A stretch of 64,000 nt of DNA from Lentisphaerota bacterium (GTDB lineage: Bacteria; Verrucomicrobiota; Lentisphaeria; Victivallales; Victivallaceae). A model generated the notes under the pieces. That model was given only the letters and a program-made list of their open reading frames with translations, had not been told where the DNA came from and made no database searches. The position numbers were made by a program, and so were the translations under genes. This document shows, piece by piece, positions 19,498 to 22,381 of this stretch. The stretch spans positions 1-64,000 of the forward strand of contig SUWG01000010.1 in the NCBI GenBank assembly GCA_015061625.1, read 5' to 3'. Within the stretch, counting starts at the first letter, position 1, and each line of letters opens with the position of its first letter.

Positions 19498-20739
19498 ATG
19501 TTTCGTAAACGAAATGTAACTTGCGCCGTAGAATTCGGCACATCCAAAATCGTGGTGCTTGTCGGCGAAGTCGATGACCATGGCGGAGTGAGTTCCGTTA
19601 TCGGTTACGGGGCGGCTCATGCTCCGGGGGCGGTGGTCAAAGGAGAGGTTGCCGATGTCAAGCGTGCCGCAGAGGCATTCCGTCAGGCGTTGGAGGAAGC
19701 CGATCGGGCATCCGGCGGTGAATTGGTCAACTGCCGTCTGATGACGATGCTGGTTTCCGGTTGCGGTATTGAATCCAAACTTTCCAAAGGGATCGTCACG
19801 GTAAAAAATCCTGACCGGATAATTACTGAAGTTGAGCAGCAGGAAGCCAGAGAAAATGCCAAATTCACCGCGTCCGGCAACGGCAGGGAGATCATCAATA
19901 CATCAGTATCGCACTATCTGGTCGATAACCGCCGGGTGAGCAATCCGCTGGGGCAATCCGGCACTCAACTTGAAGCGTGGGTACATATTATTCACGCCGT
20001 GGCCGGCAGAGTGGATAATTTCCGTTCAGTGGTGATCAATTCCGGGGTGGAAGATGCCCGGATCGAGGCGGTGTTTTCGCCGCTGGCCACCGGTGAGGGG
20101 ATTTGCAGTGAGCTGGAAAAGGAAAATGGTTCACTGCTGGTGGATATCGGAGCCGGAACAACTGAATATCTGGTTTATTTTGATCGCGGGGTCTGTGCAT
20201 CCGGAGTTATTCCTCTGGGCATGGAACACGTTGCCAATGATTTGAGCATCGGTTTGAAACTGCATATCGACGCCTGTCGCAGATTGTTGGAAAACGGCAC
20301 ATTGGCCAAGGCGATACAGGAAAAGAAAAGTTCTCTGGAGTTGCCCGGAAGCACCGGCAGGATGATGACGATACCATTGACATCGTTTGAAGTCATTGTT
20401 GATGCCCGGATACGGGAGATTTTTGAATTGATCCGCCGTCAACTGCGGGAAAAGAATGCGCCGCGGGCGTTGGGGGCCGGCGGTATTCTTACCGGCGGCG
20501 GTGCGGAATATTTCCGCAGCCGTGAGTTATTTTGTGACATATTTGATATGAATTGCCGTATCGGTATTCCGGCGAATGCGCCCGGAGCCGGATTTGATTT
20601 GGATTCCCCCCGTTTCAGTGCGATTTGGGGAGCATTGAAAGTTGCGGCATATTTTCAGCATAATTTCATTGCACCGACCGGTGCCGGGGATAACGTTTTC
20701 AAACGCCTTGGCAAGATGTTCGGACGCAGGAGCAGATAA
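19498..20739 (+). CDS. ftsA: Cell division protein FtsA
   Basis: Actin-fold ATPase that tethers FtsZ filaments to the membrane. 413 residues. Phosphate-1 segment FGTSKIVVLVGE near the N-terminus, the SHS2 (1C) domain at about 90-165, phosphate-2 VDIGAGTTEYLVYF, the adenosine motif ILTGGGAEYF, and a C-terminal basic amphipathic helix NVFKRLGKMFGRRSR that would bind the membrane. An upstream in-frame start at 19432 overlaps the predicted promoter, so ATG 19498 is chosen. It is followed by ftsZ after 2 bases. No ftsQ or mur genes are adjacent. Confidence 0.92.
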   Translation: MFRKRNVTCAVEFGTSKIVVLVGEVDDHGGVSSVIGYGAAHAPGAVVKGEVADVKRAAEAFRQALEEADRASGGELVNCRLMTMLVSGCGIESKLSKGIVTVKNPDRIITEVEQQEARENAKFTASGNGREIINTSVSHYLVDNRRVSNPLGQSGTQLEAWVHIIHAVAGRVDNFRSVVINSGVEDARIEAVFSPLATGEGICSELEKENGSLLVDIGAGTTEYLVYFDRGVCASGVIPLGMEHVANDLSIGLKLHIDACRRLLENGTLAKAIQEKKSSLELPGSTGRMMTIPLTSFEVIVDARIREIFELIRRQLREKNAPRALGAGGILTGGGAEYFRSRELFCDIFDMNCRIGIPANAPGAGFDLDSPRFSAIWGALKVAAYFQHNFIAPTGAGDNVFKRLGKMFGRRSR

Positions 20740-20741
20740 GT

Positions 20742-21914
20742 ATGGCGGAAAACAGAATTACCATCATGGCAGTTGGCGGTGCCGGATGCCGGATCATGCA
20801 AAAATTTACTGCGTTGGAAGCGGCGGATAAATTCCGTTTGCTGGCTTTGGATAGCGACAGTAATTCATTGCAGAATTCCGGAGTAAGTGAAGAAAACTGG
20901 ATACAGGCGGGGCGGTTGTTACGTTCCGGGCGCGGATGCGGCGGAGATATCATTGCCGGTCAACAGGCATTGGCAAATGAAAGAAAATTGCTCAATTCGG
21001 TTCTGGCTTCAACGGATATACTGGTCGTGGTTGCCGGTTTGGGCGGCGGTTTGGCTACCGGCGGACTGCCGGTAATTTTGGGTGTGGCGGCCAAATTGCA
21101 TATTACCACGACGGTATTGGTCACATTGCCGTTTGCCATGGAAGGATTCCAGCGGCGGCACATCGCTGAAGAGAAGATCAGAAATGATCTTCTGCCGATC
21201 GCGGATGCGGTGATCGCATTGCCCAATGACCTGCTGTTTTCCACGATGGAAGCGGAAACGCCGATTTCAGAAGCGTTCCAAAGATCGGATGAAGAGATTT
21301 CCCGCACGCTTTTTGCGGTGGTTTCCGTGTTGGGCGGAGCGAATCTTTTCAATGCGGATTTTGCGGCTTTTACCGGAGTGTTGAAACGGCGTCACTCGTT
21401 GTGCGCTTTGGGAACTGCTCTGGTCGAAAATAATGAGAATGCCGCTTCAAATGCGATGGATGAGTTGCTTTCTTCCCCGTTGCTTGGGGGACCGGAAACG
21501 CTGGATAATGCTGATGCCGTGGCATTTTCGTTGATCGGCGGGCCGGAGTTATCTATGGGCAGTGCGCGGGCGGTGCTGGATTTGTGCGCCAGGCAGGTGA
21601 ATCCGGATTTTGAGAAAAAACTGCTTATGGGGGCGGCCACCGATGAGGATTTTACCGGTAAGATCCAGTTGACAGTTTTGACGGTAAGATATTTGGATAA
21701 TCAGGTGCAGGAAGATGCTCCGGCGGTGAAACATTCATTCCGCCGCCGTCCCGTTGCGGCCGGTGGTGATGATGGTGAGCAGTTGGCATTGCCGAATCTG
21801 GATGTGGTGGAAAAAGGCATTATGGAAAATACCACGCCGGTCATGCTGGATGGCGAAGATCTGGATGTGCCGACTTTTATCCGGCGCAGTCTGGTGATCG
21901 AATTGGGAAAATAA
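20742..21914 (+). CDS. ftsZ: Divergent FtsZ homologue lacking the key T7-loop aspartate
   Basis: Tubulin-fold division protein, 390 residues, colinear with FtsZ. Conserved: nucleotide loop AVGGAGCR (10-17), the E/R pair in FAMEGFQRRH, PNDLL (161-165), and the C-terminal peptide DLDVPTFIRR, the FtsA-binding tail. Changed: the tubulin signature GGGTGTG is GGGLATG (101-107), and the T7 loop reads NADFAAF (204-210), so the residue equal to E. coli Asp212 is Ala209, while Asn207 and Asp209 equivalents remain. GTP binding is plausible, but normal hydrolysis is doubtful. It follows ftsA by 2 bases; no second ftsZ is in the window. Confidence 0.9.
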   Translation: MAENRITIMAVGGAGCRIMQKFTALEAADKFRLLALDSDSNSLQNSGVSEENWIQAGRLLRSGRGCGGDIIAGQQALANERKLLNSVLASTDILVVVAGLGGGLATGGLPVILGVAAKLHITTTVLVTLPFAMEGFQRRHIAEEKIRNDLLPIADAVIALPNDLLFSTMEAETPISEAFQRSDEEISRTLFAVVSVLGGANLFNADFAAFTGVLKRRHSLCALGTALVENNENAASNAMDELLSSPLLGGPETLDNADAVAFSLIGGPELSMGSARAVLDLCARQVNPDFEKKLLMGAATDEDFTGKIQLTVLTVRYLDNQVQEDAPAVKHSFRRRPVAAGGDDGEQLALPNLDVVEKGIMENTTPVMLDGEDLDVPTFIRRSLVIELGK

Positions 21915-22033
21915 AAAAAAGTAAAAAAATATTGAAGTTACTAAAATAATTAGGCTTTCTTTATCGTTTTAAGATTGGAAGCACTTGGAATATGGTGCAA
22001 AAAACATCAAAACTTAAAAGAAAGGATCCGATT

Positions 22034-22381
22034 ATGAAAAAGACAGTCAAAGTTACGATGCTTGCCGCCGTTATGGTAATGGGATGTGCCGCATTTGCCG
22101 GTCCGCATGGCGGCCGCCATCACCGTCACCACCGTGACGGTCTGGATCTGGCCACCGGCATTGTGAATCTGGTAATGAGCGTGGTTGCTCCGGCCCCGGT
22201 GGTAGTTGCCCCGGCTCCGGTGGTAGTTACTCCGCCGCCGGTTTACTATCATCAGCGTCCGGTGGTTGTAACTCCGCCGCCGCGGCATCATTACCGCCCG
22301 GCTCCGCGGTATCATCACCGTCCGGCTCCGCACCACCGTCCGGCACCGCATCACGGCCGCCGCCCGCCGCGGCACCGTTAA
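22034..22381 (+). CDS. Small His/Pro-rich exported protein
   Basis: 115 residues. Signal peptide MKKTVKVTMLAAVMVMGCAAFA with likely cleavage before GPH; VMGC is a poor lipobox alternative. The mature chain is low-complexity: a His/Arg cluster (HHRHHR), a Val/Ala/Pro block with APVVVAPAPVVV-type repeats, and a His/Pro/Arg tail. The many histidines could bind metal, but that is inference. AAAGGA at 22021-22026 supports the start. It precedes lepB by 18 bases. A weak promoter (TTTAAG, 17 bases, TATGGT near 21992) is possible upstream. Confidence 0.7.
   Translation: MKKTVKVTMLAAVMVMGCAAFAGPHGGRHHRHHRDGLDLATGIVNLVMSVVAPAPVVVAPAPVVVTPPPVYYHQRPVVVTPPPRHHYRPAPRYHHRPAPHHRPAPHHGRRPPRHR

What the first reader, a model, noticed from the sequence alone, without database searches (positions are those of the whole stretch)
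20742..21914. FtsZ with a degenerate tubulin signature and no T7 catalytic aspartate, next to an intact FtsA
Seen: the protein aligns with FtsZ from the nucleotide loop to the FtsA-binding tail (DLDVPTFIRR), but the GGGTGTG signature is GGGLATG and the T7 loop is NADFAAF. Known: in E. coli the T7-loop Asp212 is essential for GTP hydrolysis across the filament interface. Its counterpart here is Ala209 (codon 21366-21368), while Asn207 and Asp209 equivalents stay. Inference: filaments may bind GTP but hydrolyse it slowly or not at all, or the chemistry has been rearranged. Either would be an unusual division system in a cell that still keeps FtsA.
Basis: partly seen in the sequence, partly recalled or inferred. 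Interest (0 to 1): 0.72.

Follow-up and report, generated by a model that had tools for sequence, protein, structure and literature searches.

The report
FtsZ lacking one catalytic aspartate
A gut bacterium's only known copy of the cell-division protein FtsZ lacks one of the two acidic residues that normally break down its GTP fuel; relatives across its phylum often lack one too, so these bacteria may divide with slow or altered FtsZ dynamics.

Summary
ORF 20742-21914 is an FtsZ with GGGLATG for GGGTGTG and NADFAAF for NVDFADV; E. coli Asp212 is Ala209 (GCT, 21366-21368). It is the only tubulin-superfamily gene found in its genome (about 91% complete), lies 2 bp behind ftsA, keeps the FtsA-binding tail and is under purifying selection. 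A paralogue or pseudogene is unlikely.

It is not an oddity of this cell. Among 187 FtsZ rows from its phylum, 45 keep both Asp209 and Asp212, 95 only Asp209, 36 only Asp212 and 11 neither. In the window's genus 24 of 30 lack Asp212; none lacks both. The two losses avoid each other by one of two tree-based tests.

Best reading: the main division FtsZ, binding GTP and polymerising, with a one-aspartate active site that hydrolyses slowly. E. coli D212A keeps about 7% of activity (literature). A rearranged site with a normal rate is the main rival.

In one distant family of the class, 16 of 29 genomes have an FtsZ without the T7/C-terminal domain but with the FtsA tail; three near-complete genomes of another family show no FtsZ. 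No activity was measured.

The parts
20742..21914 (+). ftsZ, 390 aa, the only tubulin-superfamily gene found in the genome
19498..20739 (+). ftsA; start ATG 19498 inferred (the listed ORF begins at TTG 19432); stop 2 bp before the ftsZ ATG
   Evidence: TIGR01174 218.6 bits, cut-off 175.85; Pfam FtsA and SHS2_FTSA
20728..20732 (+). AGGAG, likely ribosome-binding site of ftsZ
   Evidence: sequence reading
21042..21062 (+). T4 'tubulin signature' GGGLATG (E. coli GGGTGTG; T108L, G109A)
21351..21371 (+). T7 loop NADFAAF, residues 204-210
   Evidence: ungapped against E. coli and PDB chains; coordinates
21357..21359 (+). Asp206 = E. coli Asp209, kept; GAT in all 12 rows of the closest clade, window included
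21366..21368 (+). Ala209 = E. coli Asp212, lost
21813..21842 (+). KGIMENTTPV, a tail motif that recurs in the class just before the FtsA-binding peptide; partner unknown
   Evidence: tails listed; coordinates
21858..21887 (+). DLDVPTFIRR, FtsA-binding tail
   Evidence: tail pattern in 66 of 72 family and 42 of 42 other class loci; five of the six misses differ by one residue and L057 ends with its contig (tails)

Best explanation
This is the cell's main division FtsZ. It binds GTP, polymerises and is tied to the membrane by the FtsA encoded beside it. Its active site, built between two subunits, has only one of the two T7 aspartates: Asp206 (= Asp209) can still hold the attacking water, but Ala209 (= Asp212) cannot share it or reach the arginine of the next subunit, and Leu104 replaces the threonine that touches the gamma-phosphate. 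Hydrolysis should therefore be slow, filaments GTP-rich and long-lived, and turnover low or driven by partners. Shown: sequence, single copy found, linkage, selection, fold by prediction, conserved pocket loops and tail, recurrent loss of D212 across the phylum. Inferred: polymerisation, slow hydrolysis, consequences for the Z ring.
For: Only one PF00091 match in the genome; exactly one in 72 of 78 family genomes, two in none, and one in 36 of 36 good-quality ones. ftsA upstream within 255 bp in 67 of 72 family loci. dN/dS 0.12-0.34 against 11 relatives (dS 1.0-1.8, so rough). 18 core columns are invariant in the 72 family proteins; 13 of them lie in the T1-T6 nucleotide loops and none in T7 (loop ranges). 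D209/D212 complementarity: 11 of 187 rows lack both, 0 of 30 in the genus; phi -0.39, P = 0.0055 against independent evolution on the tree. Literature passages: S. aureus D210 and D213 hold the water and T109 contacts the gamma-phosphate position (PMC8936486); E. coli D212A 7% GTPase (PMC8142252); D212G static rings, about a tenth of the activity in that paper's chimera and under 1% by a work it cites (PMC7320174); D212A with extra FtsA, in a wild-type background, makes septa that finish (PMC4383033).
Against: S. aureus D213N does not assemble in vitro (PMC8936486). E. coli D212G does not complement an ftsZ null without a suppressor (PMC5405962). The independent-pairs test of D209/D212 complementarity points the same way (2.7 against 0.6 pairs) but is not significant. 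The simulation behind P = 0.0055 over-predicts losses (mean 76.8 rows lacking both, 11 seen), and it gives an avoidance of N207 and D212 loss as well (phi -0.24, P = 0.0165), so the pattern is not clean. Not all pocket columns are strict: G20 is kept in 47 of 72, G106 in 56, N165 in 66. Class-wide changes (N43 to Asp in 72 of 72 and 42 of 42; A70 to Cys in 64 of 72 and 40 of 42) or acids elsewhere (see rival 1) could restore the rate. The structure model is weak at T7 (pLDDT about 57-58, residues 201-220). No biochemistry.
Confidence: 0.48

Rival explanations
1. Rearranged chemistry: the rate is near normal because the pocket was remodelled. One T7 aspartate suffices, helped by a new Asp in the T2 loop (N43D), Cys/Gly in T3, or an acid that took over from Asp212 from elsewhere in the chain.
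For: N43 is Asp in 114 of 114 class loci and A70 is Cys in 104 of 114; at least one T7 Asp is kept in 176 of 187 rows, as if catalysis were still selected; R142 stays R or K in 69 of 72. Columns that are more often acidic in the family when D212 is lost are acidic in the window protein at three core places: D255, E291 and D303 (E. coli 255, 289, 301).
Against: That column scan is not corrected for relatedness and tests hundreds of columns; its strongest core candidate, E. coli 237, is Ser in the window. Whether D255, E291 or D303 can reach the active site was not tested. N43D, being fixed, does not by itself explain why D209 and D212 each change at least 20 times (inference).
Confidence: 0.32
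2. Hydrolysis-free or non-polymerising scaffold: FtsZ here is mainly an FtsA-bound adaptor, an early stage of the decay that is complete in other families of the class.
For: 16 of 29 genomes of family f21 carry an FtsZ of N-domain plus tail without the T7/C-terminal domain, with ftsA upstream in 15 of 16 truncated loci and dN/dS 0.11-0.16 in the five truncated pairs that could be computed; three near-complete g56 genomes show no FtsZ.
Against: The window protein keeps both domains and conserved nucleotide loops. 28 of 29 f21 genomes hold a second tubulin-like protein that this family lacks, so they may not be comparable.
Confidence: 0.13
3. Degenerate paralogue or pseudogene, with a canonical FtsZ elsewhere.
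For: The assembly is 90.9% complete, so a gene can be missing; TIGR00065 cut-off not reached.
Against: One copy in 72 of 78 family genomes and two in none; open frame, purifying selection, ftsA linkage; the second tubulin-like family was not found in this family.
Confidence: 0.03

Closest known systems
FtsZ (E. coli, B. subtilis, S. aureus, M. jannaschii)
   Different: D212 to Ala, T108 to Leu, G109 to Ala, Q47 to Asn, N43 to Asp; 25% identity to E. coli
E. coli FtsZ D212A / D212G laboratory mutants
   Same: The same residue is lost; D212A is the same substitution
   Different: A natural, apparently sole and selected gene with further pocket changes; the mutants were made in an otherwise canonical protein
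FtsZ of other Verrucomicrobiota (Verrucomicrobium spinosum is described as divergent; its ftsZ is essential, PMC12283558, passages)
   Same: T7 aspartate pair broken in most rows examined (9 of 62 keep both)
   Different: Often D212 to Thr with T108 kept (e.g. L187-L189); V. spinosum's own sequence was not at hand, so its T7 loop was not seen
FtsZl1/FtsZl2 families (PMC2875224, passages)
   Same: Diverged members of the superfamily; FtsZl1 also lacks recognisable T6-H7 elements
   Different: The window protein is full-length FtsZ; the comparison bears on the second class paralogue, not on this gene, and was not tested by sequence

Membership tests
FtsZ | Tubulin/FtsZ GTPase domain (PF00091) and FtsZ C-terminal domain (PF12327) over Pfam cut-offs | tested here: met
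   73 (33) and 30.2 (27) bits
FtsZ | NCBI equivalogue model TIGR00065 over its cut-off | tested here: not met
   152.8 bits against 295.2 over residues 4-324; the only NCBIfam match at E <= 0.001, but too divergent for automatic naming. I therefore call it a divergent FtsZ, not a canonical one
FtsZ | FtsZ fold | tested here: met
FtsZ | FtsA-binding C-terminal peptide, ftsA neighbour, single copy | tested here: met
   single copy within a 90.9% complete assembly
canonical GTP-hydrolysing FtsZ | Tubulin signature [SAG]GGTG[SAT]G | tested here: not met
   GGGLATG; pattern as quoted in PMC1845146
canonical GTP-hydrolysing FtsZ | T7 loop with both aspartates (D209, D212) | tested here: not met
   D206 kept, A209 in place of D212
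canonical GTP-hydrolysing FtsZ | GTP-dependent polymerisation and GTPase activity | not testable with these tools
   needs purified protein
second tubulin-like family of the class (alignment A1) | match to its profile | tested here: not met
   no match in the own genome at E <= 0.01

The most novel reading that the evidence does not exclude
In Verrucomicrobiota, and most of all in class Lentisphaeria, cell division has been released from fast GTP hydrolysis by FtsZ. The two catalytic aspartates are traded one for the other, so that most lineages run on a one-aspartate active site. In one family FtsZ has gone further and become a small FtsA-bound protein with no T7 loop at all, and a few lineages have dropped it while keeping FtsA-like proteins and a second tubulin with a membrane helix. 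This would be a living series of steps from treadmilling FtsZ towards the FtsZ-free division of the neighbouring Planctomycetota and Chlamydiota.
Probability: 0.3. Interest if true: 0.87.

Novelty: new variant of a known kind. Interest (0 to 1): 0.6.

Why it matters
Treadmilling powered by GTP hydrolysis is held to organise septal wall synthesis in E. coli and B. subtilis (recalled), and the T7 residues are described as conserved across species (PMC8936486, passage). A phylum in which the aspartate pair is intact in a minority of FtsZ genes (45 of 187 rows) would show that fast FtsZ hydrolysis is not a universal need, or that it can be done another way. It gives natural proteins for dissecting the two aspartates, and makes the loss of FtsZ in the PVC superphylum testable step by step.

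Tried and rejected
Co-loss of T108 and D212: looked striking in the alignment (of the 36 class loci without Thr108, 28 also lack D212, against 32 of 78 with it), but it is largely shared descent. Independent pairs give no signal (about 1.0 pair the same way, 1.2 the other); the simulation gives P = 0.0475. Not claimed.

Second FtsZ as partner: the extra copy in 28 class genomes is a separate divergent family (A1) that has no gene of its own in the window's family; the five weak A1 matches in f1 and f8 lie on their FtsZ genes. A heteropolymer is not supported for this genome.

Compensating acidic residue: at T7 itself none. A scan of all columns in the family is not conclusive: the window is acidic at three core columns of that list.

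Outgroup phylum search: not possible; conservation elsewhere rests on E. coli, the chains shown and a statement in PMC8936486. A Bacteroidia locus (L186) was tried as a further outgroup row, but the script printed no FtsZ for it.

Paper searches on FtsZ in this phylum, the T7 loop and D212: nothing in the listings, or in the passages opened, reports this T7 loss. I opened only the papers named in this report plus PMC5147048, by passages (PMC1845146 also by its results section); subscription papers are mostly not held.

Full report
What is there. The window is contig 37 of a 2.7 Mb assembly, 90.9% complete; its nearest named relatives are sheep- and other animal-gut Lentisphaeria genomes. ORF 20742-21914 encodes a 390-aa FtsZ. 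Its start codon follows the ftsA stop by two bases, with AGGAG at 20728-20732. Neighbours are a ClpX-like ATPase, a protein kinase, dxr, a protein without Pfam match and ftsA on one side, and a small protein without Pfam match, a signal peptidase, a BrkB-family protein and a Cys/Met-metabolism enzyme on the other. Two FtsW/RodA genes lie elsewhere in the genome.

The residues. Alignment with E. coli FtsZ and with B. subtilis and M. jannaschii chains has no gap at T4 or T7. Against E. coli numbering: N43D, D45 kept, Q47N, A70C, T108L, G109A, R142 kept, N207 kept, D209 kept (Asp206), D212A (Ala209, GCT at 21366-21368). In S. aureus FtsZ the counterparts of D209 and D212 hold the attacking water, the counterpart of D212 also reaches R143 through a water, and T109 contacts the gamma-phosphate position (PMC8936486, passages).

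Single copy and selection. PF00091 finds one gene in the genome. In the family, 72 of 78 genomes have exactly one and none has two; 36 of 36 good-quality genomes have it. The six without a match are 76-87% complete, and in five of them the best FtsA match is weak as well (E between 1e-13 and 1e-16), which suggests that the ftsA-ftsZ contig is missing. ftsA lies upstream (within 255 bp) in 67 of 72 family loci and (within 400 bp) in 35 of 42 other class loci. dN/dS against 11 close relatives is 0.12-0.34, with dS at 1.0-1.8, so rough. The model (pLDDT 72.6; about 57-58 around T7) has the FtsZ fold.

How common the loss is. In the family, D212 is kept in 40 of 72 loci; the rest have A, S, N, T or K. 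In the window's own genus, 30 of 34 genomes gave a locus; 6 of these 30 keep D212 and none lacks both aspartates. I then aligned 126 Lentisphaeria and 62 other Verrucomicrobiota FtsZ rows. The 62 come from 75 genomes outside the class in a phylum search: its 30 best matches plus 32 that I chose to cover weaker matches and more families, so they are not a random sample. N207-D209-D212 is complete in 1 of 126 and 6 of 62. Over the 187 rows with letters at both sites, 45 keep both aspartates, 95 only D209, 36 only D212, 11 neither. Left out before these counts: repeat fetches of the same gene (including L001, the window again), the truncated f21 proteins described below, and class genomes whose gene was not fetched (178 of 197 class genomes had a PF00091 match).

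Evolution. On a quick tree of 184 rows, built without the T4 and T7 columns, D212 and D209 each change state at least 20 times, T108 21 and N207 17. Losses of D209 and D212 avoid each other: phi -0.39, P = 0.0055 under a simulation of independent two-state evolution on that tree. Cautions: the fitted model over-predicts losses (mean 76.8 rows lacking both against 11 seen), it also finds N207 and D212 losses apart (phi -0.24, P = 0.0165), and the treekit independent-pairs test agrees in direction (2.7 pairs against 0.6) but is not significant. I take 'at least one aspartate' as likely, not proven. In contrast, 18 of the core columns are invariant in the 72 family proteins; 13 of the 18 lie in the nucleotide loops T1-T6 and none in T7. 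Other pocket columns do vary (G20 kept in 47 of 72, G106 in 56, N165 in 66). By entropy 207, 209, 212 and 108 rank 199, 93, 157 and 131 among 300 columns counted from the most conserved. So GTP binding looks held and the hydrolytic loop looser.

Mechanism. E. coli D212A has about 7% of wild-type GTPase (PMC8142252, citing earlier work). D212G makes static rings; its activity was about a tenth in that paper's chimera and under 1% by a work it cites (PMC7320174). D212A overproduced with FtsA in wild-type cells gives septa that complete (PMC4383033). D212G does not complement a null, but suppressors arise (PMC5405962). S. aureus Q48A and R143K cut GTPase about six-fold and stabilise polymers, while D213N blocks assembly (PMC8936486). 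All were seen as passages. With Q47, T108 and D212 all changed, slow hydrolysis and stable filaments are the simplest expectation. Class-wide N43D and A70C, or acids elsewhere, could offset this, and that is the main rival: in an uncorrected scan, columns 255, 289 and 301 are more often acidic when D212 is lost and are acidic in the window protein.

The wider series. Outside this family the class holds two further things. First, a second tubulin-like protein of about 366 aa (motif STGGGTGNG, C-terminal LKRIGKL) matches strongly in 58 of 197 genomes; the three matches in the window's family (78 genomes) and two in f8 are weak and lie on FtsZ genes. Pfam sees the three examples tried only as Tubulin, one over the cut-off and two under it. 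Second, FtsZ decays. Of 29 genomes in family f21, 9 have an FtsZ match that spans both domains, 16 have an N-domain joined to the FtsA tail without the T7/C-terminal domain (243-297 aa where complete; L268 is cut at the end of its stretch; G109 was seen only as match ranges), one (G124) has only a linker-and-tail match, and three (G110, G111, G122) have none. Those three also have only weak FtsA matches, so the contig may be missing there. An ftsA match lies on the same strand upstream in 15 of the 16 truncated loci (15 genomes). dN/dS is 0.11-0.16 in the five truncated pairs that could be computed; three further pairs had saturated dS. Three g56 genomes, 94-96% complete, have no FtsZ match with either search (best E 0.004, on the second tubulin-like gene; none with profile A5); their best FtsA-model matches (E 7e-41 to 2e-43) are not among the matches listed as over the curated cut-off (a capped list). 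In the class as a whole the FtsA model matches in 197 of 197 genomes at E <= 0.001 and over its cut-off in 152; the weakest matches may be other actin-like proteins.

Verdict. In my paper searches neither the listings nor the passages opened report broken T7 pairs in this phylum; verrucomicrobial FtsZ is described as highly divergent (PMC9871819 and PMC12283558, passages; PMC1845146, results section).

Noticed in passing
L131, L132, L135, L138-L141, L143-L162, L163-L172; neighbourhoods L269-L272: A second, very divergent tubulin-superfamily protein (about 366 aa, STGGGTGNG, C-terminal amphipathic-looking LKRIGKL) in 58 of 197 class genomes; in two of four neighbourhoods viewed (L270, L272) a 110-115 aa frame sits directly upstream (which lists only frames of 110 aa or more). 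No T7 loop recognised by eye.
   Followed up: partly
L127-L129, L254, L255, L257, L259-L268: Truncated FtsZ (N-domain plus FtsA-binding tail, no T7/C-terminal domain), mostly with ftsA upstream, in 16 of 29 genomes of one family.
   Followed up: partly
genomes G087, G088, G089 (genus g56): Three near-complete genomes with no detectable FtsZ but with the second tubulin-like protein and FtsA-like matches.
   Followed up: partly
window 21813-21842: KGI(M/F)xNTTPV-like motif that recurs in the FtsZ linker of the class just before the FtsA peptide; perhaps a second partner site (tails).
   Followed up: no
window 21992-22381: Small His/Pro-rich protein, secreted by its look, between ftsZ and the signal peptidase gene; no Pfam match.
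   Followed up: no
L206, L212-L214, L216, L242, L248: FtsZ of family f28 (genus g89 in all seven; Akkermansia is a guess) lacks the Asp209 counterpart (Gly) and has Asp or Glu at 212.
   Followed up: no
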